Assembly: GCF_036250755.1 (NCBI RefSeq)
Contig: NZ_CP109583.1
Coordinates: 1,116,001-1,180,000 of the forward strand
DNA: 64,000 nucleotides
Source: Streptomyces uncialis
GTDB lineage: Bacteria; Actinomycetota; Actinomycetes; Streptomycetales; Streptomycetaceae
Direction of reading: 5' to 3'
Shown: positions 14,507 through 55,899 of the stretch, one piece after another
Position numbering within the stretch: the stretch's first letter is position 1
Layout of the letters: every line of letters starts with the position of its first letter
The notes under the pieces: generated by a model
The model's database searches: none
Told to the model about the DNA's origin: nothing
Seen by the model: only the letters and a program-made list of their open reading frames with translations
Made by a program: the position numbers and the translations under genes

Positions 14507-14537
14507 AGTATCGACCGTACGACTGACACCATGTCAA
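14507..14537 (-). promoter_or_regulatory. Likely promoter of the Rhs toxin operon
   Basis: Read on the minus strand there is a consensus -35, TTGACA (14537-14532), and a -10-like CGATAC (14513-14508) after an 18-base spacer. The -35 overlaps the inverted repeat TGACA-CCA-TGTCA at 14524-14536, which could bind a regulator. The predicted start lies roughly 150 bases before the GTG at 14349. Confidence 0.6.
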
Positions 14538-37432: not shown

Positions 37433-38049
37433 GGTGGATCGTGCTGGAGAAGGCGCTCCATGGTGGCCAGGTCCTCGGTGAGGGGGTCTTGCCTCCGGCG
37501 GGGCCCGCAGCCCTGGACGAGGCGGGCGTAGTCGGCCGCCGCCCGGTCGACCCGTTCGCCCAGGGCGGCGCCGCTCTCGTGGGAGCCGAAGTCGTCGGTG
37601 GCGGCGTAGACGCCCCGGGGCGAGACGATGGCGTGCAGATAGGAGAACATCGGCCGCAGCGCGTGTTCCAGGACCAGGGAGTGCCGCTCCGTGCCGCCGG
37701 ACGCCCCGATGAGCACGGGCATGTCCGCGAACGTGTCCTCCGGCAGCACGTCGAAGAACGACTTGAACAGCCCGCTGAAGGACGCGTTGAACGCGGGGGT
37801 GACCGCGATGACGCCGTCGGCGTCCGCGACCGTGCCGAACGCCTCCTCCAAGGGCGCGGTGGGGAAGCCGCTCAGCATCGCGTCGATGATCGCGCGGCCC
37901 AGTGGGCGCAGTTCGACGAACGAGGACTCCACCGTGTCGCCCGCGCGGGTGAGTTCCGCGCGCACGGACGCCTCCAGCCGGTCGGCCAGCAGACGCGTCG
38001 AGGAAGGATCCCGCAGCCCGGCGGTGATGATCGCGATCTTGGTGGTCAT
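37429..38049 (-). CDS. NAD(P)H:FMN reductase (CE1759-like)
   Basis: The 206-residue flavodoxin-fold protein reads IAIITAGLRDPSSTRLLADRL at the phosphate-binding loop and FNASFSGLFKSFFDVLP in the flavin-binding region. It matches NADPH-dependent FMN reductases (SsuE/CE1759 type) that hand reduced FMN to partner monooxygenases. The gene starts 15 bases after the stop of the luciferase-like monooxygenase gene at 38065-39195, the usual arrangement of a two-component system. It may also serve the RutA-like enzyme upstream. Confidence 0.92.
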   Translation of the reverse strand: MTTKIAIITAGLRDPSSTRLLADRLEASVRAELTRAGDTVESSFVELRPLGRAIIDAMLSGFPTAPLEEAFGTVADADGVIAVTPAFNASFSGLFKSFFDVLPEDTFADMPVLIGASGGTERHSLVLEHALRPMFSYLHAIVSPRGVYAATDDFGSHESGAALGERVDRAAADYARLVQGCGPRRRQDPLTEDLATMERLLQHDPP

Positions 38050-38064
38050 CCCCTCACGCTCCTC

Positions 38065-39195: not shown

Positions 39196-39546
39196 AGCGC
39201 TGTCACTCTCCCTGCCTGTGTGACGCACACCCCTGTTCGCGGTTGCCGTCCTTCCCGCTGAACGGGCGGGTGGCGAGATCCTTGACGACCTCCTGGCGGC
39301 CTCCGCGGGGCGTCCTCGCTCCCGTACGGTGCGGAGCCGGTGCGGGCCCACCGCGTCCGGCCGGCCACGGCGAGCTACCGCCGCATCCGCCCCACCGGCC
39401 TCACCGCACCCCTAGCTATTCCCCCACGGCCGGAAGCCGAACCACTCTCCCGCGAACCAGGTCAAAGATGCACCAATGGGAAAAGGTGGTAGAGGTCTGC
39501 CGGAATCCGGTCCAGGGAGCACGGTCCCGGGAGCACGGCCCGGTGC
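39196..39546. other. Intergenic region before the luciferase-like monooxygenase operon
   Basis: The 351-base gap contains no supported gene. On the minus strand TTTGACC (about 39460) and AATAGCT (about 39415) are promoter-like but poorly spaced. GAGCAC-N6-GTGCTC at 39531-39548 overlaps the stop of the RutA-like gene and may form a weak terminator; GGGAGCACGG is repeated in direct orientation next to it. Confidence 0.4.
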
Positions 39547-40614
39547 TCAGGAGGTACGGGATCTCATGAGCGGCTGGATACGGGTGCCGAAGTTCTCCAT
39601 GCCTTCGAGGAAGTCGTCGAAGACCAGGATGACGCCTGTGACGCCGTCGATCCCGCTGATCCGGTCGAGCATCCCCGCGACGGTCGCGAAGGACCCGACG
39701 AGCGTTCCCATGTTGAGGTTCACCGCGCCCTCGGGGAGCGCCACGGTCTTCGCGGTCGAGGACGCGTCGGCGTCCTTGTCCGTCGCGGTCTGTTCCGTCA
39801 GATAACCGAGCGCGGCGAGGTCGGCGTTGTCGTGGTAGTCCTTCCATTTCGCCCGCGCGGCGTGGTCCGTCTCGTCCGCGATGACCATGAACAGCGCGAG
39901 TGCGCCGACGTCACGGCCGGTCGTACGTACTTGTTCGGTGAGTGCGGCGGTGGCGTCGGAGAGTGCGAGCGGAGTGTTGACCCCACTGCCCAGGATGAAG
40001 TTCCCGTCGGCGTGCTCGGCGGCGAACCTCATACCCGTACCGCTCTGTCCGGCGGCGAGGATGTCGATGTGTCCGTTCACCGGGCGCGGCGACAGCACAC
40101 AGTCGTCCATCCGGTAGAACTCGCCCTGGAAGTCACTCGTACCCTCGCCCCACAACTGCCGTAGCACGGTGACGTATTCGGCGGCGCGCCGGTATCGATC
40201 GGCGAAGTGCCCGTCCCCGGGCCAGAGATCCATCTGCGCGTACTCGGCGGGCGACCAGCCGGTGACGATGTTGACCCCGGCCCGGCCGGGGGCGATCGCG
40301 TCGATGGTCACCGCCATCCGGGCGGCGATCGCCGGGGGCAGGGCGAGGACCGGCGCGGACGCGTACAGCCTGATCCGTTCCGTGACGGCGGCCAGGGCCG
40401 CCGTCAGGGTGAACGACTCAAGACAGTGGTCCCAGAACTCCGTCTCGCCACCGAAACCCCTGAGCTTGATCATCGACAGCGCGAAGTCCAGTCCGTACTC
40501 CTCGGCACTCCGCACGACGGCCTTGTTCAGTTCGAACGTCGGCATGTACTGCGGAGAGCTTTTCGAGATGAGCCAGCCGTTGTTGCCGATGGGGAGAAAG
40601 ACCCCGATCTCCAT
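39547..40614 (-). CDS. rutA: RutA-like pyrimidine monooxygenase
   Basis: The 355-residue protein closely follows E. coli RutA from the start: [113 protein letters not shown] and [14 protein letters not shown]. RutA uses FMNH2 and oxygen to open the uracil ring, giving ureidoacrylate. None of rutB-G lies nearby, so a complete Rut degradation pathway is not encoded here. An FMN reductase sits two genes away. Location directly after the NRPS operon suggests precursor supply or tailoring rather than nitrogen scavenging. ATG 40614 follows GAGGAG with five-base spacing. Confidence 0.9.
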
Positions 40615-40793
40615 ACCGCTCCTCAGTCGCCGGGGCAGGCGATCCCCGCACCGCTTCCCGCCCCCACCGCCGCCCCGCCGGGGCGGCCCTGCCCGGGTAC
40701 GCCGATCCTGCCCATGGCACGGCGCGGTACACAACGGCACGCGGTCGCGGTCCATCCGCCCGTCCGCCGACGGGTGGCGGCCGGGGTACGGGT

Positions 40794-40854: not shown

Positions 40855-43800
40855 TCAGCCGGTCCGCATGGGGCGGGTCCCGGCGGTGGTGGGAGTACCG
40901 GGGGCGGGGCGGTCCGAGGTGAGGGCGGCGAGGCCCACCAGGTCGTCCGCCTGCGCGTCCGGGACCTCTCTGTCGAACCGGGCCAGCACCCGCACCCGCA
41001 GCGAGACCGCTCCCAGCAGCAGGATCGCGACCCCGAGGAGGATGTACAGCAGCCCGATCCCCCGCCCGTCGCCCGCACCCAGAACAGCGCCCACGGTATC
41101 GGCGAGCGCGCCGTCCGAGGCCATCAGCGGCTCCAGGTACCGGCTGCCGAACGGCGCGATCAGCAGGAAGCCCACCGGCAGGGTGGACCACGCGACAAGC
41201 TGGTTGAGCGCCATCACCCGGCCGTGGAACCGCTGCGGCACCTTTACCTGAATGATCGTCAGATAGATGCCGTTGAGTATCGACAGCGACGCCGACATCC
41301 CGAACACCCCGGCGCAGACCATCAGCAGCTCGGGCCGCAGCCCGGTCAGGACGGAGAAGAACGCCAGCACCGGCAGCACGAGCAGCATCCCGCGCATCCG
41401 GCGGTGGCGCGGCCCGCCCCAGACACCCATCGCCAGGCCGCCGACGATCGCGCCGATCCCGCCCGCGAGGGAGACCGTGGCCACCGTGCCGAGCCCGGAG
41501 AAGCCGAGCACCAGCGGCGGGACGAGCTGGAAGAGGACCGGCAGGAAGAGGTTGAGGACGGCGAAGAAGAGCAGCATCGCCCGGAACCCGGGCCTGCGCC
41601 AGACCAGCCGGAACCCGGCCGTGATCTCCTGCTTCAGGGTCTCGCGCCGCCGCGCGGCCAGCGTGCGCGGGAACCGGACCGCCAGCAGGATCAGCGCCGC
41701 CACCACATAGCTGACCACGTCGATCAGCAGCACACCGCCCAGACCGATACCGGCGAGCAGACCGACCGCCGCGAGCGGGGCGACCACCTGGGCCATACCG
41801 CCGGATATCTGTACGACGCCGTTGGCGTGGCCGAGATAGCGCTTCGGCACGAGCTGCGGGATCGCCGACTGGAAGGCGAGCCGCTGGCCGGTGAGGGAGA
41901 CCGAGAGGATCGCCATCAGCACCCCGACATGCCAGGGCCGCAGGGTCCCGAGCACATGGAGCAGCGCGAGGACCGCCTCGGACGTACCGCAGACCAGGGT
42001 CGACACCAGCATCACCCGGCGGCGGTCGACACGGTCGACCAGGCCGCCGAGGAGCGGGGCGGCCAGCAGCCCCGGCACGATACCGAGGACGGCGAAGAGG
42101 CCGAACCAGGCGACCGAGTCCGTCGAGAGGTAGATCCACAGCGGCAGGGCGAACTCGGTCAGCGCCGAGCCGGTCTGCGAGATCATCTGGGAGGCGGCGA
42201 CGGCCACGAACCGACGGGTGTCCCGGCGGGTCGCCGGGGTGGCGGACCGCTCACCGGCGGCCGACGCGTGGTGAACACCGTCCAGCCACCAGGTGGCACG
42301 CCCGGGGCGGTGGGCACGGGTGAGGGCGACGACATCGGCGTGTTCCAGGCCGTCGGACTCCGTGTCGCCCGGTCCCGTGCTGTCGTTCTCCGGACTGACG
42401 GGTTCCGTGCGGTCGCGCTCTGCGTTGTCGGGTTCCGTGGTCCGTGTGGTGTCCGTGGCTCCGGCGACCCCGGTGGCCTTGGTGGCTACTGGGGCTTTGG
42501 TGAACGCGGAGTGCTCCGGTTCGGTGCCGGGCGCGCTCCCCGGGCCGGGCCCCGTGCGCGACGCCGCGACCGCCGGGTGGACCGTGGTGACGATCTCGGC
42601 GAGTTCCGTGGCGCGGTGCTTGAGGAAGTAGTGGCCGCCCTCGTCGAGCACGGCGACGGCGGTGGTGGGGCCGACGAAGCCCCACTCCCGGAACCGCTCG
42701 CGGTGGAAGTCGGTCCCCGGGTCGGCGGAGCCGATCACCGAGACCACCGGGGACGCCAGCGCGGGCGCGGGCCGGGCGAGTTGCTCGGTGAAGTACGCCT
42801 CGGCCGCGCGGGAGTCCTCCCGTACGTTCCGTACGATCGTGGCCAACTGCTCCGGTTCCAGGCCCTCCAGGTCGGCGCCCATGGAGCGGAGCCAGTTCAG
42901 GTGGAGCCGTCCGCTGCGTCGCCGGTCCAGCACGGAGAAGCGGGCGAGCAGCCCGAGCAGGCCCTCGGTGGGCCGGGCGAAGGGGAAGATCCCGCCCAGA
43001 TAGACGGCGGCGGGCTCCCGTCCGGCGGCGGACAGCTGGTGGGCCAGTTCGACGGCGAGTGCGGCGCCCACCCCGCAGTGCCCGTACACGGCGACCGGTC
43101 CGGTCACCCCGCTCAGCACCTCCTCGGCGCAGCGGCGGGCCACCTCCTCCAGCGGCAGCGACTCCTCGGACATGCCGAGGTCGTGGCCGGGGACGGCGAC
43201 AGCGTGCAGGGCGACACCGGGCGGCAGGGCGTCCGCGAGCGGCTGGTAGACGACGGCACTGCCACCGCCGTACGGCAGACAGACCAGGGAGAGCGTGACC
43301 CGGTCGACTGATTGACGGGGCGTCAGTTCGTGCAGGAAGCGGCTCGGTCCGCGCTCGGAGTCGGAGCGGTCGGCGAGGGCCGCGAGCGCGGCGACGGTCC
43401 GCTCCCGGAAGACGTCCATGAGGGTGATCCGGGCCTCGGGGCCCAGCAGCCCGCGCAGGGCGGCCACCATCCGCATGGCCAGCAGGGAGTGTCCGCCGAG
43501 GTCGAAGAAGTCGTCGTGCGCGCCGACGCGTTCCAGTCCGAGCAGAGCGGCCCAGCAACCGGCGACCGCCTCCTCGGTGGGGGTGGCGGGGGCCGTCCAG
43601 ACGGCGGCCTCGCCGGGGCCGGGCGTGCCGGGCTCGGGCAGCGCCCGGCGGTCGACCTTGCCGTGGGCCTGCCGGGGCAGGTCGGGCAGGACGACGAAGC
43701 GGGAGGGGACGAGGTAGTCGGGCAGCTTCTCGGCCAGCAGTCGGCGCAGTTCGGCGACCGGCGGCGGGGCCTCGTCGGCGGTGGGGACGAGGTAGCCGAC

Positions 43801-46800
43801 GAGGACGAGTTCACCGGCGGGGCCCCGGGCGGCGGCGACGGCCTGGGCGACCCCGGGGAGCCGGGCGAGATGAGCCTCCACCTCACCGAGTTCGACCCGG
43901 TAGCCACGGATCTTGACCTGGTGGTCGTCGCGGCCGAGGAATTCGATCGTGCCGTCGGAACGGTGGCGGGCGAGGTCCCCGGTGCGGTACATGCGCGGTG
44001 CGGCGGCAGCCTGCACGATCTCGGCGTCATCGGCATCCCCGGAGCCTTCGGGTCTGTCCGGTCTCCCAGGTCTCTCCGGTCTCTCCGCTCTCGCGGATCT
44101 GTCAGGTCTCCTGGCTTCCTCGGTGACCGGGGCGGTGACCGAAGCCGTGTCCGAAGCCGTGACCGGGGAGGTGGCCGTGCGTGGGGCTTCGGCGAAGGGG
44201 TCGGCGCGGAAGCGTTCGGCGGTCAGGTCCGGCAGGCCGAGATAGCCGCGCGCCAGCCGGTCGCCGCCGATCCACAGCTCCCCCGGTACCCCGGCGGGCA
44301 CCGGCTGCCGACGGGCGTCGAGCAGATAGACCCGTGCGCCCGGCAGCGGGTGCCCGATGGGGGTGGTGGGTCCCGCCGCGGGCAGGTCCGGGTCCACCAG
44401 GTGGGTGGTGGCGCCCACGGTGGCCTCGGTCGGTCCGTAGTGGTTGATCACCCGGCAGCCGGTACGGGCTCCCGCCACCGCGAGCCGGCGCGCCCACTCC
44501 CAGCCGGACGCCTCGCCGCCGAGGACGAGCAGCCGTCGGGGCAGCAGCTCCGCCGGGTCGTCCACCTCGGCGCACAGCGCGGCCAGATGGGAGGGAGTGA
44601 GCTTGACGCAGTCGATGCGCCACTCGGCGAGATGGGCGGCCAGCTCCGGGCCGGGGGTGCGCGGGGGCAGCAGATGCAGGGTGCCGCCGGTGGTGAGCGC
44701 GAGATACAGGGTGGTGAGGCCGAAGTCGAAGGCGAGCGACTGGAGCAGGACGTAACGGGCGCCGTCCGCGAGCCCGGCCTCGCCGAAGCGCTGTCTCACT
44801 CCGGCGAGGTAGGTGAGCACCTGGCGGTGCTGCACGGCGACGCCCTTGGGGGTGCCGGTGGAGCCCGAGGTGTAGATGACGTACGCGAGGTGGTCGGGTC
44901 CCGCGCCGTCGCCGTCGCCGGGCGGGGTGTCGGGGACGGCGGCGAGCCGGTCCGCGAGTCCGTCGAGCAGCAGGACCGGGGCGTCGGACGCGGTCAGCAG
45001 GGACCGCCGGAGGGAGGTGGTGACGAGGGCGACCGGCGCGGAGTCGGTCAGCATATGGGCGAGACGTTCGCGGGGCTGCTCGGGGTCGAGCGGTACGTAC
45101 GCGGCGCCGGACTTCAGCACGGCGAGCAGGCAGACGGCCTGGTCGAGGCCCTGGTCGAGACAGACGCCGACGAGCCGGTCGGGTCCGGCGCCGGTGCCGC
45201 GCAGCAGCCGGGCCAGCCGGTTGGCCCGGCGGTCGAGTTCGGCGTAGGTGAGGGTGCGGCCCTCATGGACGAGGGCGATCGCGTCGGGGGTGCGGGCGGC
45301 CTGCGCGGTGACGGCGGCGGCGAGGGTCGCGGCGGCCGGGCGGGCGGCGCCGGAGTCGTTCCACTCGTACAGCACCCGGTCGCGTTCGCCGGGGGTGAGG
45401 AGGTCGAGGGCGCCGACGGGGGTGTGCGGGTCGGCGGCGGCCCCGGCGAGGACGCGTTGCCAGTGCCCGGCGAGGCGGGCGACGGTGGCGGCGTCCCAGA
45501 GGTCGGTGCGGTAGGTGACGAAGGCGTCGAGGCCGTCCTCGGTCTCGGTGCAGTACAGCCCGAGGTCGAGATGGACGCCGGTGCCCTCGAAGGGGAAGGT
45601 CCGCCACTGGAGGTCGCGCGGCTGGACGGTCTGGGCACGGTGGTTCTGGAGGGCGAAGGAGACCTGGAAGAGGGGCGGCCGGCCGAGGTCGCGCGGCAGG
45701 TTCAGCGCCTCGACCAGCCGCTCGAACGGCGCCTCGCGGTGCTGCTGGGCGCCGAGGGCGGCGGTGCGGACGCGGTCGAGGACGACCGCGAAACCGGGCC
45801 CGGCGTCGTCACCGTCGACCGCGTCGTCCCCCGGCCCCGGCTCGGACGTGCCGAGGTCGGCGCGGATCGGCAGCATCGTACTGAACAGACCGATCAGGCC
45901 CTCGGTGGCCTCGTCGGGACGGCCCGCGAACGGTGTGCCGACGGCGAAGTCCCGCTGCCCCGACCAGCGGCCGAGCACCACCTGGAAGGCGGCGAGCAGA
46001 GTCATGTAGAGGGTGGCGCCCCGGGCCCGGGAGAGCGCGCGGACGGCCTGGTACGTGTCGGCGTCGAGCCGGAAGGCGTGGGTCGCTCCGCCGGGGCCGG
46101 GTACGGCGGGGCGCGGCCGGTCGGTGGGCAGGTCCAGCGGCGGGACCCCGGTCATGGCCTCGCACCAGTACCGCAGGTCGGCGGCGGCCCCCGGCAGGCT
46201 CTGGCGCTCGCGCTGCCAGTGGGCGAAGTCGCCGTAGCGGATGGGCAGCGGCGGCGGGGAGGGGGTGGCGCCCCGGACCAGTTCCTCGTAGCCGGTGAGG
46301 AGTTCGTCCAGGAGCACACCGGCGGACCAGCCGTCACCGACGAGATGGTGCTGGCAGATCACGAGCACGTGGTCGTCGTCGGCGAGGCGCAGCAGCAGGG
46401 CCCGCAGCAGGGGCCCGTCCACGAGGTCGAAGGGCAGTGCGACCTCGTCCTCGACGGCGGCGCGGGCGGCGGTCTCGCGTTCCCCGGCCGGGAGTCCGGT
46501 GAGGTCGCGGGTACCCCAGGGCACGGTGAAGCCGTCGGCGGGCGTGACACGTACCCGGGGCATGCCGTCCTCGTCGGCGGGGAAGGTGCTGCGCAGCGTG
46601 TCGTGGCGGACTGCGATCAGACGCAGCGCCTCGGCGAGGGCTTCGTCCCGGAGCGGGCCGCGCAGCCGTCCGGCGGTGGGCAGGACGTAGGCGGCGGTGC
46701 CGGGGGTCAGTTGCTCGACGAACCAGAGACGTTCCTGCGCGAGCGACAGCGGCTGGGGTTCGTCGTCCGGGCGGGCCGGAATGCCGGTGGGCCGGGCGGC

Positions 46801-47226
46801 CGCGGCGGCGGCGCGTTCGCGCAGTCGCCGGGCGAGCAGGGCACGCTGATCACCGCTGAGCGCCCGCCGGGGCGGACGGTCGGTGGGCGTGGGTGGCGCC
46901 ACGACGGGGTCGGGCGGCGCGGCGGCGGTGGGGGCGGGGTCCGTGGGGACGGTACGCGCCGGAGCGGTGGCCACCGACGCGGCGGCGCTGGGCATGGCGT
47001 CCACCGATGCGGAACGTGTCACCGTGACACCCGTCGGCGCGGGCACGGCCGGCGCCGGGGCGGCCTGCGCGGAGACGGACGGTGCAGGCGCCGCCGGTAC
47101 GGAGACGGACGGTGCAGGCGCCGCCGGTACGGAGACCGTGAGCGCGGCGGCCGTGGGCGTGAGGGCTTCCGGGGAGCCCAGGGAGTGGGGCGAGCCCGGG
47201 GAGTGGGGCGGGTTCAAGGGGTCCAT
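40855..47226 (-). CDS. NRPS C-A-PCP-TE fused to an MFS exporter
   Basis: The product has 2123 residues from ATG 47226. An Ala/Pro repeat N-terminus (1 to about 115) is followed by C (HHLVGDGWS near 293), A (YTSGSTGTPKG near 793), PCP (LGGHSLLAM near 1246), TE (about 1300-1560) and a 12-helix-type MFS domain (about 1670-2100, motif DRVDRRRV). By-eye alignment to the GrsA core gives code D-F-T-K-V-G-H-V-G-K, closest to Asp/Asn-type codes. The TE nucleophile elbow is GHCGVG with C1384 (TGC at 43075-43077) where Ser is usual, and GGHYF supplies the histidine. The MFS part resembles EntS-like exporters. Release and export are thus in one chain. The A domain carries a long Arg/Pro/Glu insert before MYRTGDLA. 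The start overlaps the upstream NRPS stop (TGATG). Confidence 0.94.
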   Translation of the reverse strand: MDPLNPPHSPGSPHSLGSPEALTPTAAALTVSVPAAPAPSVSVPAAPAPSVSAQAAPAPAVPAPTGVTVTRSASVDAMPSAAASVATAPARTVPTDPAPTAAAPPDPVVAPPTPTDRPPRRALSGDQRALLARRLRERAAAAAARPTGIPARPDDEPQPLSLAQERLWFVEQLTPGTAAYVLPTAGRLRGPLRDEALAEALRLIAVRHDTLRSTFPADEDGMPRVRVTPADGFTVPWGTRDLTGLPAGERETAARAAVEDEVALPFDLVDGPLLRALLLRLADDDHVLVICQHHLVGDGWSAGVLLDELLTGYEELVRGATPSPPPLPIRYGDFAHWQRERQSLPGAAADLRYWCEAMTGVPPLDLPTDRPRPAVPGPGGATHAFRLDADTYQAVRALSRARGATLYMTLLAAFQVVLGRWSGQRDFAVGTPFAGRPDEATEGLIGLFSTMLPIRADLGTSEPGPGDDAVDGDDAGPGFAVVLDRVRTAALGAQQHREAPFERLVEALNLPRDLGRPPLFQVSFALQNHRAQTVQPRDLQWRTFPFEGTGVHLDLGLYCTETEDGLDAFVTYRTDLWDAATVARLAGHWQRVLAGAAADPHTPVGALDLLTPGERDRVLYEWNDSGAARPAAATLAAAVTAQAARTPDAIALVHEGRTLTYAELDRRANRLARLLRGTGAGPDRLVGVCLDQGLDQAVCLLAVLKSGAAYVPLDPEQPRERLAHMLTDSAPVALVTTSLRRSLLTASDAPVLLLDGLADRLAAVPDTPPGDGDGAGPDHLAYVIYTSGSTGTPKGVAVQHRQVLTYLAGVRQRFGEAGLADGARYVLLQSLAFDFGLTTLYLALTTGGTLHLLPPRTPGPELAAHLAEWRIDCVKLTPSHLAALCAEVDDPAELLPRRLLVLGGEASGWEWARRLAVAGARTGCRVINHYGPTEATVGATTHLVDPDLPAAGPTTPIGHPLPGARVYLLDARRQPVPAGVPGELWIGGDRLARGYLGLPDLTAERFRADPFAEAPRTATSPVTASDTASVTAPVTEEARRPDRSARAERPERPGRPDRPEGSGDADDAEIVQAAAAPRMYRTGDLARHRSDGTIEFLGRDDHQVKIRGYRVELGEVEAHLARLPGVAQAVAAARGPAGELVLVGYLVPTADEAPPPVAELRRLLAEKLPDYLVPSRFVVLPDLPRQAHGKVDRRALPEPGTPGPGEAAVWTAPATPTEEAVAGCWAALLGLERVGAHDDFFDLGGHSLLAMRMVAALRGLLGPEARITLMDVFRERTVAALAALADRSDSERGPSRFLHELTPRQSVDRVTLSLVCLPYGGGSAVVYQPLADALPPGVALHAVAVPGHDLGMSEESLPLEEVARRCAEEVLSGVTGPVAVYGHCGVGAALAVELAHQLSAAGREPAAVYLGGIFPFARPTEGLLGLLARFSVLDRRRSGRLHLNWLRSMGADLEGLEPEQLATIVRNVREDSRAAEAYFTEQLARPAPALASPVVSVIGSADPGTDFHRERFREWGFVGPTTAVAVLDEGGHYFLKHRATELAEIVTTVHPAVAASRTGPGPGSAPGTEPEHSAFTKAPVATKATGVAGATDTTRTTEPDNAERDRTEPVSPENDSTGPGDTESDGLEHADVVALTRAHRPGRATWWLDGVHHASAAGERSATPATRRDTRRFVAVAASQMISQTGSALTEFALPLWIYLSTDSVAWFGLFAVLGIVPGLLAAPLLGGLVDRVDRRRVMLVSTLVCGTSEAVLALLHVLGTLRPWHVGVLMAILSVSLTGQRLAFQSAIPQLVPKRYLGHANGVVQISGGMAQVVAPLAAVGLLAGIGLGGVLLIDVVSYVVAALILLAVRFPRTLAARRRETLKQEITAGFRLVWRRPGFRAMLLFFAVLNLFLPVLFQLVPPLVLGFSGLGTVATVSLAGGIGAIVGGLAMGVWGGPRHRRMRGMLLVLPVLAFFSVLTGLRPELLMVCAGVFGMSASLSILNGIYLTIIQVKVPQRFHGRVMALNQLVAWSTLPVGFLLIAPFGSRYLEPLMASDGALADTVGAVLGAGDGRGIGLLYILLGVAILLLGAVSLRVRVLARFDREVPDAQADDLVGLAALTSDRPAPGTPTTAGTRPMRTG
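47071..47130. repeat. Exact 30-bp tandem duplication inside the NRPS-MFS gene
   Basis: Bases 47071-47100 are repeated exactly at 47101-47130. They encode two identical decapeptides, VSVPAAPAPS, within a longer Ala/Pro repeat at the N-terminus of the NRPS. The repeat is in frame and probably a flexible tether. Confidence 0.95.
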
Positions 47227-50200
47227 CACGCCTCCTCCGCCAGCAGTTCGAGCACGACAGCGTCGGTCACCGTGGCCACCGTGGTGGACTCCTCGTAGAA
47301 GACATGCAGGGGTACGTCGACCCCCAGGCGGTCCCGGATACGGGCCGCGACCTGGGTGATGGTCAGGGAGTGCGCGCCGAGGTCGACGACATCGTCGTGG
47401 TGGCCGATGACGGGCAGGTCCAGCACCTCGCACCAGATGGCGGCTATCCCGGCGGCCAGCTCGTCCCATCCGTCGTCCGGGCCCGGGTCGCCGTCCGGGG
47501 ACACGGTGTCCGGCGCGGACTCCGTTGTGCCCCGGGCCGGTTCGGGCAGGGCCGCGCGGTCCGTCTTGCCGTTGGGGGTGAGCGGGAGGGCCGGGAGCGG
47601 GTGGACGACACCGGGGACCATCGCGTCCGGCAGTACCAGGGTGAGGAAGGAGCGCAGTTCGGCGCTGGTCGGTACAGGGGCCTCCGGGCGCCAGACCGGG
47701 TACGCGACGAGTATCCGGCCGACCGGGTCGCCGTCGTCGCCCCGGACCGCGACGGCCGCCGCCGCGACGGCGGGATGGTCCTGGAGACGGGCCTCGATCT
47801 CGCCGAGTTCGATCCGGTGGCCGCGCAGCTTGATCTGGTCGTCGCGGCGGCCGAGGCAGTCGAGCGCGCCGTCGGGCCGGACCCTCGCGAGGTCGCCGGT
47901 GCGGTAGTGGCGGGCGCCGGTGACCGGGTCGGTGACGAAGCGTTCGGCGGTCTGCTCGGGCCGGCCCCGGTAGCCCCGGGCCAGTCCGGCGCCGCCCAGG
48001 GCCAGTTCGCCGGTGACCCCGTGCGGTACGGGGTGCCCGGCCGGGCCGACGACGAGGGCGGTGGTACCGGCGATGGGGCGGCCGATGGTGATCCCGTCGG
48101 GTACGGGCGGCACCTCGGCGGCGGTGGACCAGATGGTGGTCTCGGTCGGCCCGTACACGTTCCACAGCCGTGCGACACGTGTCCGCAGCCGGCGGGCGAG
48201 CGCGAGGGGCAGGGCCTCGCCGCCGCTGAGGGCGATGAGGGCGGGGGCGTCGAGCCCGCCGTCCAGCAGGAGCCGCCAGCCCGACGGGGTGGCCTGCGCG
48301 TGGGTGACGCCGTGCCGCCCGACCAGGGCGGCGAGGGCGCGGCCGTCGCGGGTGTCCGTCTCGCGCGCGATCACCACCCGGCCGCCGGTGATCAGCGGCA
48401 GCAGCAGTTCGAGGGCGGAGATGTCGAAGGAGAGCGAGGTGACGGCGAGCCAGACGTCGTCGGGACCGGCTGCCAGGGTGTCGCGGAAGGCCAGCAGGAG
48501 ATGGGCGAGGGCGCCATGGGGAACCTCGACGCCCTTGGGGCGTCCGGTGGAGCCGGAGGTGTAGATGAGGTAGGCGAGGTCGTCGGGGGTGGGGGACGGC
48601 AGCGGTGGGCCGTCGGCCCCGCCGGTCACGTCCCCGGTGAAGAGGTCGTCGAGCAGGAGGGTGCTGCCGTGTCCTTCGACCAGGTGGGCGGTGCTCCGCT
48701 GGGCGAGTGCGAGGGGAGTACCGGCGTCGGCGAGTACGAGGGCGACGCGCTCCGCCGGGTAGGACGGGTCGACGGGCAGGTACGCGCCCCCGGCGAGGGT
48801 GACGGCGAGCACGGCGGCCACCATCTCGGCGGAACGCTCCGCGCAGACGGCGACCACGGTGCCGGGGGTGACCCCGGCGGCGGTGAGCCGCCGGGCGAGG
48901 CCGGTAGCGGCGGTGGCCAGTTCCGCGTAGGTCAGGGTCTGTTCGCCGACCGACACGGCGGGGCGTGCGGCGTGCGCGGCGAAGGAGCGGGTGAGCAGCG
49001 CGGGCAACGTTGCGCCGGGTGCGTCGGGGGCGGGTTCGGGTCCGCGCAAGGGGGCGCGTTCCGTCTCGTCCAGGATCGGCAGGTCGGCCAGCGGGGTGCC
49101 GGGGGCGGCGGCGATCGAGGCGAGCAGTCGGCGCAGATGTGCGCCGACCCGGTCGGCCCGGACGGGGGACGGCAGGTCCGTACGGTGCATGAGCAGGACG
49201 CGGAGCCGGTCCGGGCCGTCGAGGAGGTGGAACCGCAGGGCGCCGCGCGCGGTGCCGGGGAAGAGCGTCCAGTCGATGGTGGCGCGTACCCCGGCGAAGG
49301 TGACGGGGGCGATCCGGCGGCGGTAGGTGAGGATGACGGGCGCGAGGGCGGAACCGGGCTGTACTCCCCGGACGGCGCGGGGCAGGGGGACGCGGCGGTG
49401 CGGGTAGCAGCCGCGCAGCTCGGCGCGGACCGTGTGGGCGAACTCGCTGAAGGGGGTGCCTGGTTCGGGGGTGGTGACCACGGGCAGCTCGTTGGCGTGC
49501 ATGCCGATCCGGTCGGCGGCGTCGGGGGTGCGGGTGCCGAGGCCGACGGTGACGGCGGGGCGCTCGTTCCCGTACCGCAGCAGGAGGGTGTGCACGGCGG
49601 CGAGGAGCAGTTCGAAGAAGGTGACGCCGAGCTTCTCGGCGGTGTCGGCGAGGCCGGTACGGAGCGCCGGGTCGATGTCGAAGTCGACGGCCGCGCCCGG
49701 ACCGACGCCGACGGCGTCGCCCGCGCCGGTGTCGAGGCCCGGCAGCAGCACCGTGGGACCGGGCAAGGGGCGGTCGGCCCAATAGGCGGACGCCTCGGCG
49801 ATCGTCCGGGCGTCGGGCTCGGGGAGGTCGGCGGCGTGGGCGAGCGAGCCGTCGGTGGCGGCCGGGGCCGGTGCGCCGCCCGTGCGGTGGGCGTAGCAGG
49901 CCGCCAGGTCGGTCAGGAACACATCGGTGGAGGTGCCGTCGAAGGCGATGTGGTGCGCGACGACCAGCAGGGTGGCGTGGGTCGGGCCGGTGCGCAGCAG
50001 GGTGAACCGTACGGGGGGTCCGGCCGCGAGGTCGAACGGCTCCGCGCTCGCGGCGGCCAGCTCGCCGGGCAGCCGTTCCGGTGTGGTGTCACGAACGGTC
50101 AGCGCGGGCGGCGGACCGGAGGTGAGCAGGGGGACCCCGTCCCGCTCACGGACGGTCAGGGCCAGGGCGGGGTGACGGTCGGCCACATCGGCGCAGGCGG

Positions 50201-50333
50201 CGGCGAGTGCGGCGGAGTCCAAGGGGCCGTCGAAGCGGACGGCGAAGGGCATGTGGTGGACGGAGCCGAGCGGCGCGATCCGCTCGTTGATCCAGATGCC
50301 CTGCTGGGCAGCGCTGGCCGGGGTGCTGGTCAC
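47226..50333 (-). CDS. NRPS module C-A-PCP, glycine-type A domain
   Basis: The 1035-residue protein starts at GTG 50333 after GAGGAAG. C domain: about 8-430 with HHIAFDG near 125. A domain: about 450-930 with YTSGSTGRPKG near 592, YGPTETT and GRRDDQIKLRGHRIELGEIE. PCP: LGAHSLTI near 987, with A replacing the second G of LGGHS; the phosphopantetheine serine is present. By-eye alignment to GrsA gives D-I-L-Q-L-G-V-I-W-K, essentially the glycine code. It therefore should add glycine. It sits between the A-PCP-C and C-A-PCP-TE-MFS proteins and overlaps the latter by one base. The upstream protein ends in a C domain, so two C domains meet at this interface. Confidence 0.94.
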   Translation of the reverse strand: MTSTPASAAQQGIWINERIAPLGSVHHMPFAVRFDGPLDSAALAAACADVADRHPALALTVRERDGVPLLTSGPPPALTVRDTTPERLPGELAAASAEPFDLAAGPPVRFTLLRTGPTHATLLVVAHHIAFDGTSTDVFLTDLAACYAHRTGGAPAPAATDGSLAHAADLPEPDARTIAEASAYWADRPLPGPTVLLPGLDTGAGDAVGVGPGAAVDFDIDPALRTGLADTAEKLGVTFFELLLAAVHTLLLRYGNERPAVTVGLGTRTPDAADRIGMHANELPVVTTPEPGTPFSEFAHTVRAELRGCYPHRRVPLPRAVRGVQPGSALAPVILTYRRRIAPVTFAGVRATIDWTLFPGTARGALRFHLLDGPDRLRVLLMHRTDLPSPVRADRVGAHLRRLLASIAAAPGTPLADLPILDETERAPLRGPEPAPDAPGATLPALLTRSFAAHAARPAVSVGEQTLTYAELATAATGLARRLTAAGVTPGTVVAVCAERSAEMVAAVLAVTLAGGAYLPVDPSYPAERVALVLADAGTPLALAQRSTAHLVEGHGSTLLLDDLFTGDVTGGADGPPLPSPTPDDLAYLIYTSGSTGRPKGVEVPHGALAHLLLAFRDTLAAGPDDVWLAVTSLSFDISALELLLPLITGGRVVIARETDTRDGRALAALVGRHGVTHAQATPSGWRLLLDGGLDAPALIALSGGEALPLALARRLRTRVARLWNVYGPTETTIWSTAAEVPPVPDGITIGRPIAGTTALVVGPAGHPVPHGVTGELALGGAGLARGYRGRPEQTAERFVTDPVTGARHYRTGDLARVRPDGALDCLGRRDDQIKLRGHRIELGEIEARLQDHPAVAAAAVAVRGDDGDPVGRILVAYPVWRPEAPVPTSAELRSFLTLVLPDAMVPGVVHPLPALPLTPNGKTDRAALPEPARGTTESAPDTVSPDGDPGPDDGWDELAAGIAAIWCEVLDLPVIGHHDDVVDLGAHSLTITQVAARIRDRLGVDVPLHVFYEESTTVATVTDAVVLELLAEEA

Positions 50334-50979: not shown

Positions 50980-53900
50980 TCAGGAGCCGGCGGCCGTGGT
51001 CAGGGCCGCGTGGAAGTCGTCGGCGAGCGCGGTGATGACCGGCTCGTCGAAGGCGAGCGCGTTGTACTGGATCCAGCAGTTCAGCGACCCGTCCGGCTTT
51101 TCCACCACGGTCAGTTCGGGGACCCCGAGGTCCCCGCCGGGCAGCGGCCAGGGCACGGTGGTGCCCCGCGGCAGCTCCCACGGTTCGCAGCGCAGGCCGG
51201 GCAGATGGGCGTCGGCGGCCCAGCTCTCGTACCGCAGCCAGGCAGGGAACGCCACCACATGCGGTTTGAACTCGGCGTAGGGGTACATCTGGTGGTCGAG
51301 CGCGCCGGTGGCGGCCCGTCGGACCCGCTCGGCGAGTTCGGCGAAGCCGGGGCCGCCGGAGCAGTCCACCCGCACCAGCAGGGACTGCACCAGACAGCCG
51401 ACGGCCTGCTGCGCCTCGGCCCTGGTCCGGCCGGGGACCGGGGTCATGAGCACCAGGTCGGGGCTGTCGGCGCGGGCCGTGAGCAGTCCGCTCCACAGGG
51501 CGGCGACGGCCATGAACGGGGTCACACCGAGTGCGCCCGCCCGTTCCCGCAGCCGTCCGGCGGGGCCGGACCCGACGGTGAAGGGGTGCGCGACGGTGTG
51601 CACACGGTCGACGGCACGCCGCCCGGGGAAGGGATCGAGCGCGGACGGGGCGCCCGCGAGCGCCGTCGCGAAGTGCCTCCGGCCGCTCCCCCAGCGGTCG
51701 TTGGCCCAGCGCACCAGCTCCGGATAGGACAGTCCGGGGTCGGGCAGCCGGGGGGTGCGGCCCCTGCGCAGGGCGTCGTAGGCGAGGCCGAGTTCGCGCA
51801 GCAGGACGCCGATCGACCAGCCGTCGGCGACCATATGGTGCACGGCGAGCAGGACGATGTGGTCCTCGGGGCCCCGGGAGACGACGAGCAGCCGGGCCGT
51901 CGGGTCGGCCGCCAGGTCGGTGAGGCGGTCCCGTTCGGCGATGAGCAGGGCGTTCACCTCGTCGTCGGTGGCGCCGGGGGCGTCCTTCAGCGTGACGCGG
52001 GGGTGGGCCTTCTCGTCCAGCACGGTCCGGACCAGCCCGTGCACGCCGCCGGGCACGGGGACGAACCGTGTCCGCAGGGCGGGGTGGCGTTCCACGAGCG
52101 CGGACAGGGCGCGGCCGAGCGCGGGGCGGTCGAGCGGGCCGGTGACACGGAAGAGGGCGGTGACGGCGCCGACATCGCGGCCGTCCTCCTCGGCCATCCA
52201 GTCGAGGAAGTTCTCCTGCTGGCTGGTGAGCGGGATCTCGTGGTGCTGGGCCCGCAGGGCGCGCAGATAGGGCGGGAGCTGCGGGTCGGGTGCGCGGTCC
52301 ACGGGGATGTCCCCGGAAGCGTGGGCGTCCGGGGTGGGTTCCCGGGCCGCCTCCCCGTCCAGCCAGGCGGCCTGGGCCCGCAGGGACGGCCGGCCGAAGA
52401 CGAGGTCGGCGCCGGTGTCGACGCCGAACCGGTCGGCGACGGCGGTGGCGAGGTGCACGGCGCGGAAGGAGTCGCCGCCGAGGGCGAAGAACTCGTCGGC
52501 CGCGTCCCGTACCGGGCGACCCAGCACCTCCTGCCAGATCGCGGCGAGGCGCAGTTCGGTGGTGGTGCCGGGTGGTCGGGCGGCGGCCGGGGCGATGGCG
52601 GCGACGGCGCCCACGCCCGCAGGGGCCGCCGCGCCGGTGTCCGTGGCGCCTGCCGCGCTCGTCACACGGTCCCCGTCCGCCGAGTGTTCCCCGTCCGTCG
52701 CGAAGAGCGGGCGCAGTCGCCGCTTGACCACCTTGCCGGAGGCGTTGCGCGGCAGGTCGTCGGCGAGCAGAACGCGTACGGGCAGTTCGGCACGGGCGAG
52801 CCGGGTGCTGAGGAAGAGCCGGAGTGCGTCGAGGTCCAGACCACTGGCGGCGGGTACCACGACGGCGACCGGTACGGACCCCATGACCGGGTGCGGTACG
52901 CCCAGTGCCGCCGCGTCCGCGACGTCCGGGTGCTCGTGCAGCGCGTCCTCGATCCGGAGGGTGGAGACCTTGAGCGCCCCGGACTTGATGACGTCGCTCT
53001 CGCGGTCCACCAGGTACAGATAGCCGTCCTCGTCCAGCCGCCCGAGGTCGCCCATCCGTACCCAGCCGTCGCGGAAGACCGTGGCACCGGCGGCCGGGTC
53101 ACCGGCGTACGAGCGCGGAGGGCCGGGCTGGCGCAGCCAGATCTCGCCCGTCCGGCCGGGCGGTACGGGGGTGCCGTCCGGAGCGAGGACGCGCAGGTCC
53201 CCGGGGTCGGTGGGGCGGCCCACCGCACCGGGCGGGGCCTGGCCGACGACGGCGGAGAGCTGCGCGGGAGCCGCTTCGGACGAGGTGTAGACGTTGACGA
53301 CGGTGGCTTTCGGCAGGGCCTCGGCGAGGGCCCGGGCGACGGGAGCGGGGAGAGCGGCGGCGGAGGAGCTGAGCAGCAGGACGCTGGAGAGGTCGTGCCG
53401 GTCGGCCGCACCGGAATTGAGCAGTTCGATCGCCATCGACGGCACGAGGAAGACGGTGCCGACGCGGCGTTCCTCGATGGTCCGGCCGAACTCCTCGGCG
53501 TCGAAGCGCGGGAGGACCACGGTGGTGGGTGCGCCGGTGAGGGCGCTGATGAGCATCACCTGACCGGCGTTGGTGCCGATGGGGAAGGAGTGCAGGGCAT
53601 GGCGCGAGTGGGCGTAGGGCCGGGGGCGGGGGTGGAGCCGCAGGCCCGCCGTGAGGTTGGCGTGGGAGGCGCGTACGCCTTTGGAGTCGCCGGTGGTTCC
53701 CGAGGTGCCGACGACCTGCGCGAGGTCGCCGGGGTCGGGACCCGTACGCCTGCGGCCGTGCGGTGAGCCGGAGCCGGTGAGGGCGTCGGGGGCGGGGCCC
53801 GTGTCCTCCCGGCGGAGCGGTGAGTCGGCTCCGGCCAGGGTGGCTCCGGCCGCCTCGATCTCGGACAGCGACAGGTCGGCGCCGCCCAGGGCGGCTCCCA

Positions 53901-54273
53901 GCGGCGGCAGTTCGGCCCCGCGCAGGACCGTCGTGGCACCGCAGATCCCGGCGAGCCGTACGGCCTCCGGTTCGGTGAGGTCGGCGCGGAGCGGCAGCGC
54001 CGCCGCCCCGGCGTGGTGGACGGCGAGGTTCGCGACCGCGTAGCCGTCCCATTCCCGGTCGGTGAAGCGCAGGGCGACGAGTTCGCCGGGCCGGACACCC
54101 GCGTCCGCCAGCCCCCGGGCGGCCCGGACGGCCCGTTCACGCCAGTTCCCGTAGGTCAGCGAGCCGCCGCCGCGTACCTCGATCGCGACCCGGTCGGGCT
54201 GTTTCGCGGCCCGGGCGTCGAGAAGGTCGGGAACGGTCAACGGTGCGGGCTTGGCGTTGATGACGTCCTCCAA
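50980..54273 (-). CDS. NRPS initiating protein A(acyl)-PCP-C
   Basis: The product has 1097 residues. I chose TTG 54273, seven bases after GGGGAG; an in-frame ATG at 54336 is possible, but the extra 21 codons lack Streptomyces codon bias. The adenylation domain (1 to about 520; GTSGTTGDSKG near 195; RNASGKVVK) lacks the Asp that binds an amino group: the FDxxxW region reads FPIGTNAG. It therefore probably activates a carboxylic acid rather than an alpha-amino acid. PCP follows (LGGDSF near 598), then a C domain (HHMVADGWS near 813). It should load an acyl group and start N-acylation. A likely donor is the acid released by the PKS at 24883-33750, by inference. Confidence 0.92.
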   Translation of the reverse strand: MEDVINAKPAPLTVPDLLDARAAKQPDRVAIEVRGGGSLTYGNWRERAVRAARGLADAGVRPGELVALRFTDREWDGYAVANLAVHHAGAAALPLRADLTEPEAVRLAGICGATTVLRGAELPPLGAALGGADLSLSEIEAAGATLAGADSPLRREDTGPAPDALTGSGSPHGRRRTGPDPGDLAQVVGTSGTTGDSKGVRASHANLTAGLRLHPRPRPYAHSRHALHSFPIGTNAGQVMLISALTGAPTTVVLPRFDAEEFGRTIEERRVGTVFLVPSMAIELLNSGAADRHDLSSVLLLSSSAAALPAPVARALAEALPKATVVNVYTSSEAAPAQLSAVVGQAPPGAVGRPTDPGDLRVLAPDGTPVPPGRTGEIWLRQPGPPRSYAGDPAAGATVFRDGWVRMGDLGRLDEDGYLYLVDRESDVIKSGALKVSTLRIEDALHEHPDVADAAALGVPHPVMGSVPVAVVVPAASGLDLDALRLFLSTRLARAELPVRVLLADDLPRNASGKVVKRRLRPLFATDGEHSADGDRVTSAAGATDTGAAAPAGVGAVAAIAPAAARPPGTTTELRLAAIWQEVLGRPVRDAADEFFALGGDSFRAVHLATAVADRFGVDTGADLVFGRPSLRAQAAWLDGEAAREPTPDAHASGDIPVDRAPDPQLPPYLRALRAQHHEIPLTSQQENFLDWMAEEDGRDVGAVTALFRVTGPLDRPALGRALSALVERHPALRTRFVPVPGGVHGLVRTVLDEKAHPRVTLKDAPGATDDEVNALLIAERDRLTDLAADPTARLLVVSRGPEDHIVLLAVHHMVADGWSIGVLLRELGLAYDALRRGRTPRLPDPGLSYPELVRWANDRWGSGRRHFATALAGAPSALDPFPGRRAVDRVHTVAHPFTVGSGPAGRLRERAGALGVTPFMAVAALWSGLLTARADSPDLVLMTPVPGRTRAEAQQAVGCLVQSLLVRVDCSGGPGFAELAERVRRAATGALDHQMYPYAEFKPHVVAFPAWLRYESWAADAHLPGLRCEPWELPRGTTVPWPLPGGDLGVPELTVVEKPDGSLNCWIQYNALAFDEPVITALADDFHAALTTAAGS

Positions 54274-54831
54274 GAGCGAACTCCCCGGGAGAATTTGTTC
54301 CGGGGATGCGAGGGCACAGGAGATGTTCACGGGCATGGCGCGCGGTTGTTGCCCTTGGATATGGTCTGGACCTTCGGCAGGGCATGCGAACAATAGCGTG
54401 CCTGTGTCGTAGTTGTGTCGCAATGATGGAGAGTTCATGGACATCGGTGGGCATCGGGTGCGTTGGCCGAACCTCGCCAGCACCTGAGCACAGCAACAAA
54501 TCCCCTCGTCAGAGGGGGTGTATCAGCCAACTCCGCAGCAAGCCGGAGCCAGGGATCCTGGATCGCTCCGTCCCACGTCCACCCGCGTCACAGGTCCCCG
54601 TCCCACCGGAAAACGGGCTCCCCAACCGGGTTCACCCGCAACGACGTTCCGCGTCCGTCCGCACGTACCGGCAGCTCCGACCCCGCCCGCCGCCGTACCC
54701 GCGCCCGTCCATCGGAACGTCCCCCGCCAACCCGCACCACCCGTCGGAACGGACGGGAGCCGAGGCGGACGCGTCCCTCGGTCCCCAGCCCCGTCCTCAC
54801 CCCACGCCCCCATCCCAAGGAGGAAGAACGC
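54274..54831. other. Divergent regulatory region of the NRPS operon and the NodB gene
   Basis: The 558 bases carry no supported gene. The part from about 54290 to 54450 is much more AT-rich than its surroundings and holds promoter-like elements for the NRPS direction (TTGCGA, then CGCTATTG on the minus strand, about 54390-54422). A small perfect hairpin, CCCCTC-GTCA-GAGGGG, lies at 54502-54517. Regulation cannot be read with certainty. Confidence 0.5.
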
Positions 54832-55899
54832 ATGCTGTACGCGGGAATCGCCTGGTCAGCCGACGGTTACGACGTGGAGGTCATCGATTCCGACGGGAAC
54901 CGGGCAACTGCCCCCACCCACTGGGGCGCCGAGCGCACAGCGGAGCTGACCGCCTGGCTCGGAGCGCCCGGCTCGTCGTCCGAACCTCCCCGCGCCGTGG
55001 TCGTCGAGAGCACCAACGGCCTCGTGGACGGGCTCTTCACGGCGGCCGGTCTGACGGTCTACCGCGCCGACCCCTGGGTACTTCCCGATCGGCCCGACTT
55101 CGGCTCCGTCCCGGCCCTGGCCCTCGCCGAACGGGCCAGGACCGACCTCGCGTCCCTCTCCCCGCTGACGGCGGAGGGCGGCGGCCAGACCGGCCGGGAC
55201 GACGACTACCACGGCGGCATCCGGCGCAGCGCGGCGATCGAGGAAGAACTCACCAGGGCGGGCCGCTGGTTCCGCCACGGAGCACGCGACCGCCACGAGA
55301 TCGCCCTGACCTTCGACGACGGCCCCGACCCGGTCCACACCGGTCAGGTGCTCGACATCCTCGCCCGCTACGGCGTGCACGCCACCTTCTTCTGCGTGGG
55401 CCTCCATGTGAACGCGCTCCCCGACGAGGTGCGGCGGATCGTGGCCGCGGGGCACAGCCTCGGCAACCACACCTGGTCGCACCCGTTCATGCCGGACCTG
55501 AGTCCCCGCCAGTTCCGGCTCCAACTGGAGCGGACCGACGACGCGTTCGACCGCGCGGTGGGCCGGGTGCCGACGGTCTTCCGCCCCCCGTACGGCTCGC
55601 GCACCCCGGAGACCCTGGGCGAACTCCTGCCCGGTGGGCCCGCCCTGGCCCTGTGGGACGTCGACTCCTGGGACTGGGCCCGTCCCGGCCCGGAGAAGAT
55701 CGCCAGTACGGTGCTGGACCACGCCGGTCCGGGCTCCCTGATCCTGATGCACGACGGCGGCGGTGACCGCCGCCAGAGCGTGGCGGCCCTGCCGGCCGTG
55801 ATCGAGGGGCTGCTGGAGCGGGATCTGCGCTTCGTGGCGGCGGACGCGCTGCTGGCCGGGGCGCGGGCGCGGAGCGCGGTGGCACACCTCGGGGAGTGA
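54832..55899 (+). CDS. NodB polysaccharide deacetylase with degenerate IS110-transposase-like N-terminus
   Basis: ATG 54832 follows AAGGAGG and gives 355 residues. Residues about 155-340 form a complete NodB domain: TFDDGPDP (D161 and D162 region), HTWSH metal site (about 212-216), RPPYG and LILMHDG. It should hydrolyse an N-acyl group from a sugar polymer or a small molecule. Residues 1 to about 120 look like the DEDD/RuvC-like domain of IS110 transposases: YAGIAWSADGYDVEVIDSDG, AVVVESTNGLVDGLFTAAGLTVYRADP and ALAERARTDL. The first catalytic Asp (GIDW) is Ala here, so it cannot be an active transposase. There is no signal peptide, so the enzyme is probably cytoplasmic. Divergent from the NRPS operon, it could be a pathway deacylase. 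Confidence 0.88.
   Translation: MLYAGIAWSADGYDVEVIDSDGNRATAPTHWGAERTAELTAWLGAPGSSSEPPRAVVVESTNGLVDGLFTAAGLTVYRADPWVLPDRPDFGSVPALALAERARTDLASLSPLTAEGGGQTGRDDDYHGGIRRSAAIEEELTRAGRWFRHGARDRHEIALTFDDGPDPVHTGQVLDILARYGVHATFFCVGLHVNALPDEVRRIVAAGHSLGNHTWSHPFMPDLSPRQFRLQLERTDDAFDRAVGRVPTVFRPPYGSRTPETLGELLPGGPALALWDVDSWDWARPGPEKIASTVLDHAGPGSLILMHDGGGDRRQSVAALPAVIEGLLERDLRFVAADALLAGARARSAVAHLGE

What the first reader, a model, noticed from the sequence alone, without database searches (positions are those of the whole stretch)
43030..43320. Thioesterase domain with cysteine in place of the catalytic serine
The nucleophile elbow reads GHCGVG (TGC codon at 43075-43077, C1384), whereas most NRPS TEs have GxSxG. 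Cys-type TEs are rare and are known from obafluorin (beta-lactone) and sulfazecin (beta-lactam) assembly, where strained rings are formed on release. With an Asp/Asn-type residue last in line, an unusual ring-forming release is conceivable.
Basis: partly seen in the sequence, partly recalled or inferred. Interest (0 to 1): 0.8.

Follow-up and report, generated by a model that had tools for sequence, protein, structure and literature searches.

The report
Cysteine thioesterase fused to an exporter
A Streptomyces peptide-assembly enzyme carries a cysteine thioesterase resembling the one that makes the beta-lactone antibiotic obafluorin, fused to a built-in exporter; the same design occurs in many actinomycetes and its product is unknown.

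Summary
Confirmed: the nucleophile elbow is GHCGVG, Cys codon at 43075-43077 (minus strand), Cys1384 of a 2,123-aa protein with architecture C-A-T-TE-MFS. Its TE is closest to ObiF1 in the PDB (77 of 226 residues identical) and keeps the five residues whose mutation lowered ObiF1 product (C1146, D1254, H1284, G1173, R1190). Cys is a family trait: 203 of 206 distinct TEs, the window's included; 197 of 206 have an MFS-length tail. Terminal A-domain codes are Asp-like (97), Ser-like (91), Cys-like (12). Two close relatives share only three NRPS genes and a deacetylase with the window; predicted chain acyl-Gly-Asp. It fails three SulM beta-lactam criteria. Asp has no beta-hydroxyl and no hydroxylase is conserved, so a beta-lactone does not follow directly. 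I favour, narrowly, release from the Cys-thioester by the last residue's own side chain (beta-lactone for Ser, beta-thiolactone for Cys, cyclic anhydride for Asp); plain hydrolysis is a serious rival. No structure model could be run and no product is known. Searches found no paper on this family.

The parts
40855..47226 (-). NRPS gene 3: C-A-T-TE-MFS, 2,123 aa; ATG at 47226 overlaps the stop of NRPS gene 2 by one base
42589..43287 (-). Thioesterase domain, residues 1314-1546
   Evidence: Pfam PF00975 E 1.6e-17; ObiF1 best PDB match
43075..43077 (-). Nucleophile Cys1384 (GHCGVG), aligned to ObiF1 Cys1146
42721..42723 (-). Triad Asp1502, aligned to ObiF1 Asp1254 (position II)
42631..42633 (-). 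Triad His1532, aligned to ObiF1 His1284
42991..42993 (-). Gly1412, aligned to ObiF1 Gly1173 (where EntF-like TEs have their Asp)
42916..42918 (-). Arg1437, aligned to ObiF1 Arg1190
41191..42198 (-). MFS exporter domain, residues 1677-2012, after a low-complexity linker
   Evidence: PF07690 E 1e-24, PF05977 E 1.7e-10; TIGR00900 at 1673-2029, below its cut-off
44239..45309 (-). Adenylation domain of module 3, code DFTKVGHVGK, Asp-like
45379..46755 (-). Condensation domain of module 3 (HHLVGDG)
43375..43569 (-). Carrier (T) domain of module 3
47226..50333 (-). NRPS gene 2: C-A-T, code DILQLGVIWK, Gly-like
50980..54483 (-). NRPS gene 1: A-T-C starter protein with a fatty-acyl-CoA-ligase-like A domain; the start may be the ATG at 54444
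54832..55899 (+). Divergent polysaccharide-deacetylase-domain protein found beside the three NRPS genes in two close relatives
   Evidence: 77% and 80% identity in G094 and G187; PF01522 E 7.2e-37

Best explanation
The domain is an ObiF1-like type I thioesterase. The predicted chain acyl-Gly-Asp is passed from the carrier domain to Cys1384 as a thioester; His1532 and Asp1502 activate the Cys, Gly1412 leaves room for the pantetheine arm and Arg1437 helps transfer (roles inferred from ObiF1). Because in ObiF1 this active site favours intramolecular capture over water, the last residue's own side chain probably attacks the thioester. That would give a beta-lactone in Ser-terminated relatives, a beta-thiolactone in Cys-terminated ones and, in this Asp-terminated one, a five-membered cyclic anhydride. 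The fused MFS domain would export the reactive product at once. Shown: the Cys, the aligned triad, architecture, conservation, codes. Inferred: acyl-enzyme, ring closure, export. My confidence that this is a functional ObiF1-like Cys TE is about 0.9; the figure below is for side-chain capture in this cluster.
For: ObiF1 is the best PDB match: 107 bits against 66 for the next, 120 against 77 by profile. The five ObiF1 positions whose mutation lowered product are kept in the window TE. In ObiF1, C1146S gave only the hydrolysed acid (PMC6668435 section 9), a reason for keeping Cys. Distinct TEs with a Ser-, Thr- or Cys-like terminal code have Cys in 104 of 104 cases, Asp-like ones in 95 of 97; three further Ser/Thr-coded places have Cys. 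Asp-coded members keep the Gly in 86 and the Arg in 94 of 97. The one member of the 206 with a basic-like terminal code (L098) has Ser and lacks the Arg. 197 of 206 have an MFS-length tail, which fits a product that must leave quickly.
Against: Asp has no beta-OH, and an aspartyl anhydride would hydrolyse fast in water (general knowledge). In a Streptomyces clade with DIWQSTA-type terminal codes both Cys (7) and Ser (41) nucleophiles occur, so nucleophile does not strictly follow terminal residue. Two Asp-coded TEs have Ser. Two ObiF1 determinants are not family-wide: the Gly is Ala in 72 of 91 Ser-coded and 12 of 12 Cys-coded TEs, and the Arg is kept in only 56 of 91 Ser-coded ones. Rows are related and not independent. 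The tree does not place ObiF1 as sister of this family. No structure model, no metabolite.
Confidence: 0.42

Rival explanations
1. Hydrolytic release: the Cys TE hydrolyses its thioester and the fused MFS exports a linear acyl-Gly-Asp lipopeptide. Cys is an inherited feature of this TE clade, kept without ring chemistry.
For: Asp lacks a beta nucleophile; no hydroxylase among the four shared genes; Cys and Ser TEs with similar terminal codes in one clade; two Asp-coded Ser variants.
Against: Cys in 95 of 97 Asp-coded and 104 of 104 Ser/Thr/Cys-coded distinct TEs; the ObiF1 residues kept in the window TE; in ObiF1 the Cys favours ring closure over water.
Confidence: 0.38
2. Beta-lactone from beta-hydroxy-Asp: the A domain loads 3-hydroxy-Asp, or the carrier-bound residue is hydroxylated by an oxygenase coded elsewhere, and the TE closes an obafluorin-type beta-lactone.
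For: [quoted passage not shown] ObiF1-like TE.
Against: No hydroxylase among the four shared genes; none among six neighbours scanned in the Asp-coded Streptosporangium locus L039, one of which has no Pfam match; the flavin monooxygenases at 38065-40755 have no match in the two relatives' regions. The rest of the genome was not searched for oxygenases.
Confidence: 0.13
3. Capture by another nucleophile: the Cys-thioester is taken by an external amine or alcohol, by a second chain, or through the extra condensation domain, giving an amide, ester or oligomer.
For: One C domain more than acyl-Gly-Asp needs: the C domain of gene 1; stand-alone C genes in 36 of 78 relatives' loci.
Against: The extra C domain may serve the starter; no candidate partner substrate was found.
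Confidence: 0.07

Closest known systems
ObiF1 thioesterase (obafluorin beta-lactone; PDB 6N8E; PMC6668435)
   Same: Integrated TE after C-A-PCP; Cys nucleophile; position-II Asp; His; Gly1173 and Arg1190 equivalents; 77 of 226 aligned residues identical
   Different: Followed by an MFS exporter instead of an MbtH-like domain; A domain Asp-like, not for a beta-hydroxy amino acid; GHCGVG where ObiF1 has GHCAG; Asp1177 is Ala (dispensable in ObiF1)
SulM thioesterase (sulfazecin beta-lactam; PDB 8W2C/8W2D; PMC11298585)
   Same: Cys nucleophile and position-II Asp
   Different: No Gln-Cys-Asn motif, no Dap code, no sulfotransferase among 31 window ORFs scanned; weaker match
Type II proofreading TEs (RifR, 6VAP)
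   Same: Related fold and Asp position; PMC11298585 grouped ObiF1 and SulM TEs with them
   Different: Ser nucleophile; other side of the deepest branch (midpoint root)
NCBI-named 'non-ribosomal peptide synthetase/MFS transporter' proteins
   Same: Same protein family and architecture
   Different: No product or function found in print in the searches made here

Membership tests
ObiF1-type beta-lactone thioesterase | Catalytic Cys in the nucleophile elbow | tested here: met
   C1384 aligned to C1146
ObiF1-type beta-lactone thioesterase | Position-II Asp, triad His, Gly1173 and Arg1190 equivalents | tested here: met
   D1502, H1532, G1412, R1437, by sequence alignment only; Gly and Arg are not kept by all relatives
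ObiF1-type beta-lactone thioesterase | Terminal beta-hydroxy amino acid | tested here: not met
   Asp-like code DFTKVGHVGK; no hydroxylase among shared genes. Ser-coded relatives would meet it.
ObiF1-type beta-lactone thioesterase | Beta-lactone product | not testable with these tools
   No metabolite data
SulM-type beta-lactam thioesterase | Position-II Asp | tested here: met
SulM-type beta-lactam thioesterase | Gln-Cys-Asn motif | tested here: not met
   His-Cys-Gly; criterion from PMC11298585 section 10
SulM-type beta-lactam thioesterase | Dap-activating last module and sulfotransferase gene | tested here: not met
   Asp-like code; no sulfotransferase among 31 window ORFs scanned with Pfam; rest of the genome not searched
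SulM-type beta-lactam thioesterase | Two of three Arg positions in the active site | not tested
   Positions not mapped
Type II thioesterase | Stand-alone protein, Ser nucleophile, clade with RifR | tested here: not met
   Integrated after a T domain, Cys, apart from RifR and 6VAP (midpoint root)
NRPS/MFS fusion family | C-A-T-TE-MFS on one chain with conserved Cys | tested here: met
   118 of the 120 homologues listed (of 1,219 matched) carry MFS Pfam domains; 203 of 206 Cys

The most novel reading that the evidence does not exclude
A widespread actinomycete family of assembly lines that each fuse a warhead-forming Cys thioesterase to its own exporter and choose the warhead by the last residue loaded: beta-lactone from Ser, beta-thiolactone from Cys, and an aspartyl anhydride from Asp, made and expelled before it can react inside the cell.
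Probability: 0.18. Interest if true: 0.9.

Novelty: new variant of a known kind. Interest (0 to 1): 0.62.

Why it matters
In the papers read here, Cys thioesterases that close four-membered rings are described for obafluorin and sulfazecin. A large family with an ObiF1-like active site, three predicted terminal residues and a built-in exporter, for which I found no paper, would be a ready source of reactive peptides. It offers a natural test of what a catalytic Cys is for: natural Ser variants (L098, L029, L031) sit beside Cys members. The TE-MFS fusion also makes coupled release and export directly testable.

Tried and rejected
SulM-type beta-lactam formation: rejected on the published motif, residue and gene criteria. 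Ordinary type II TE: rejected by architecture and, with the rooting caveat, by tree. Random Ser-to-Cys change or assembly error: rejected by conservation. Siderophore regulation: no iron-box match with up to 3 mismatches in the window (consensus recalled). Flavin monooxygenases at 38065-40755 as tailoring enzymes: no match in the regions of two close relatives. 'Cys strictly follows the terminal residue': weakened by the DIWQSTA clade. The C-terminal MFS part matched no PDB chain by sequence. A phylum-wide sample at E 1e-40 found only the own genome (1 of 396), so the family is patchy. A first count of nucleophiles by a text pattern was wrong, because the pattern also hit an upstream GHS; one search replaces it by aligned position (the tail-length and Arg counts do not use the pattern; one search repeats the residue counts). 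One search used a like pattern; I held its Ser/Cys labels for the DIWQSTA clade against the position-based labels and they agree for the places in both.

Literature: searches gave no paper on the NRPS/MFS family (35 gave two fungal papers, 62 one paper on largimycins, 63 and 64 none). Searches (none; three) were for A-domain codes. Papers seen: PMC6668435 (abstract and other passages, section 9), PMC11298585 (passages, sections 9 and 10), PMC12283262 (passages); all others only as search listings. The library holds open-licence papers only.

Full report
OBSERVATION. The window lies in a Streptomyces genome (G000:C1:1116001-1180000); its TE is identical to that of S. uncialis DCA2648. Translation of 47226-40855 on the minus strand gives a 2,123-aa protein with the motif GHCGVG; the Cys is residue 1384, codon 43075-43077. 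Pfam finds Condensation, AMP-binding, PP-binding, Thioesterase and MFS_1/MFS_3 in one open frame. The fusion is real: 118 of the 120 proteins listed (of 1,219 matched) carry MFS domains too, and NCBI names several 'non-ribosomal peptide synthetase/MFS transporter'.

WHAT THE TE IS. Of 14 distinct PDB sequences matched, ObiF1 is clearly first: 107 bits, then 66 for 6VAP, 59 for RifR and 39 for SulM. With a profile of 16 relatives (A1) the order is ObiF1 120, 6VAP 77, SulM 62, RifR 50. Placing the ObiF1 authors' numbers on the alignment (chain number minus 20) gives H1145=H1383, C1146=C1384, G1173=G1412, R1190=R1437, D1254=D1502, R1263=R1511 and H1284=H1532, with 77 of 226 aligned residues identical. 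D1177 is replaced by Ala; in ObiF1 D1177A and R1263A were like wild type. PMC6668435 section 9 reports that C1146A, D1254A, H1284A, G1173L and R1190A lower product and that C1146S gives only the hydrolysed acid. PMC11298585 says ObiF1 and SulM share a Cys and a position-II Asp, lists SulM-type criteria (Gln-Cys-Asn, Arg positions, Dap code, sulfotransferase), of which three are not met here, and reports that in its tree both grouped with type II domains. It also notes one uncharacterised TE, AB3403, with Cys but the usual Asp position, so Cys alone proves nothing.

HOW GENERAL. Related TEs came from two searches with the window TE and from 392 genomes of the genus (91 genomes at E 1e-25 or better; 23, the own one included, at 2.5e-76 or better). 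Among 206 distinct TE sequences, the window's included, read by aligned position, 203 have Cys and 3 Ser. By terminal A-domain code: Asp-like 95 Cys and 2 Ser; Ser-like 91 Cys; Cys-like 12 Cys; Thr-like 1 Cys; basic-like 1 Ser (L098); other or unread 4 Cys. 197 of 206 have more than 350 residues after the TE. The triad Asp is present in 206 of 206 and the His in 205, one unread. The Gly1412 position is Gly in 86 of 97 Asp-coded TEs but Ala in 72 of 91 Ser-coded and 12 of 12 Cys-coded ones; Arg1437 is kept in 94 of 97, 56 of 91 and 12 of 12. So the Asp-coded members, this window among them, are the most ObiF1-like, and the Ser-coded ones less so; this weakens the extension to Ser.

In a wider set of 100 Streptomyces TE places (95 of the 98 plus five distant own-genome ones), 52 have Cys, 47 Ser and one neither. 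A 117-row tree (midpoint root, several long branches) puts RifR, 6VAP, the five other own-genome TEs and L180 on one side and ObiF1, SulM, the MFS family and the rest on the other (100/99). Within that side ObiF1 is unresolved and SulM joins another clade (90/73), so neither is shown to be the sister of this family. A clade of 39 Ser TEs lies inside the mostly Cys side. Codes read upstream for 75 regions show that this clade has DIWQSTA-type codes (41 Ser, 7 Cys in all such places), so nucleophile and terminal residue are associated, not locked. Five Cys places and one Ser place gave no readable code.

THE CLUSTER. Gene 1 (50980-54483) is A-T-C with a fatty-acyl-ligase-like A domain; gene 2 (47226-50333) is C-A-T with a Gly-like code; gene 3 is the C-A-T-TE-MFS protein with an Asp-like code. 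The code meanings are backed by passages of PMC12283262 (DLTKVGHVGK Asp/Asn, DILQLGMIWK Gly, DVWHLSLVDK Ser, DLYNMSLIWK Cys). The predicted chain is acyl-Gly-Asp. In two relatives with 92% and 91% TE identity (G094, G187; about 39 kb each) only the three NRPS genes and a divergent deacetylase-domain gene match window proteins at E 1e-10; the flavin monooxygenases beside gene 3 do not. Across 78 loci longer than 9 kb other members come with a stand-alone C domain (36 loci), PDH-like E1 beta (24), E1 alpha (21), E2 (17) and a small carrier protein (15) (representatives scanned). Three-module members place a basic-like code (DTEDIGT.., resembling the Arg pattern described in PMC12283262) between Gly and Ser, Cys or Asp. 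Neighbour clusters 10, 11, 13 and 19 look like antisense gene calls and were not scanned; 14 and 15 have no Pfam match. No oxygenase is among the recurrent neighbours that I scanned; not every neighbour was scanned.

MECHANISM. The confident part is an ObiF1-like Cys thioesterase working through a Cys-thioester. The less certain part is what resolves that thioester. For Ser- and Cys-coded relatives a beta-lactone or beta-thiolactone is the natural intramolecular product. For Asp, side-chain attack would give a cyclic anhydride, chemically easy but short-lived; a beta-lactone needs hydroxylation that the shared genes do not supply; water would give a linear acyl-Gly-Asp. I put side-chain capture slightly above hydrolysis because Cys, Gly1412 and Arg1437 are kept in the Asp-coded members (95, 86 and 94 of 97) and because a fused exporter fits a reactive product. 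This is inference; no product is known and no structure model could be obtained (queue full in 16 tries).

NOVELTY. The chemistry type is known (obafluorin). The TE-MFS fusion, the Asp and Cys termini and the breadth across Streptomyces, Streptosporangium, Embleya, Nonomuraea, Herbidospora, Micromonospora and others are not described in any paper found, which search open-licence papers only.

Noticed in passing
L098:10001-10753; L126 (=L029); L127 (=L031): Natural Ser-for-Cys variants of this TE family; L098 also has a basic-like terminal code (DTEDIGTVI) and lacks the Arg1190 equivalent, and L127 is a Gly-Asp NRPS with Ser TE and no MFS tail.
   Followed up: partly
window 50980-54483 and relatives: One condensation domain more than an acyl-Gly-Asp chain needs: the starter protein ends in a C domain although gene 2 begins with its own; many relatives carry a stand-alone C gene instead.
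   Followed up: partly
window 54832-55899: The deacetylase-domain protein has an N-terminal part of about 150 residues without a Pfam match, whose start recalls IS110 transposases (resemblance from memory, not confirmed by Pfam).
   Followed up: partly
window 50334-50979: A 646-base gap between NRPS genes 1 and 2 with short imperfect tandem repeats (periods 17-50); the gap is 118 to 344 bases in L116, L118, L037 and L038.
   Followed up: partly
window 24883-33750: A separate hybrid synthase in one open frame: AMP-binding, KS, AT, DH, KR, two carrier-domain stretches and a TE.
   Followed up: no
window 5102-14532: A 2,961-aa RHS-repeat protein with Golvesin_C and a C-terminal Endonuclea_NS_2 domain, followed by a SUKH-family gene: looks like a polymorphic toxin with its immunity gene.
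   Followed up: no
window 37429-40755: A RutA-like flavin monooxygenase next to a CE1758/CE1759-like monooxygenase and FMN reductase pair, without a match in the two close relatives' regions.
   Followed up: partly
Streptomyces loci among L207-L258: A common Streptomyces TE clade with DIWQSTA-type terminal codes and an ObiF1-side TE that is mostly Ser (41) but Cys in 7; substrate unknown to me.
   Followed up: partly
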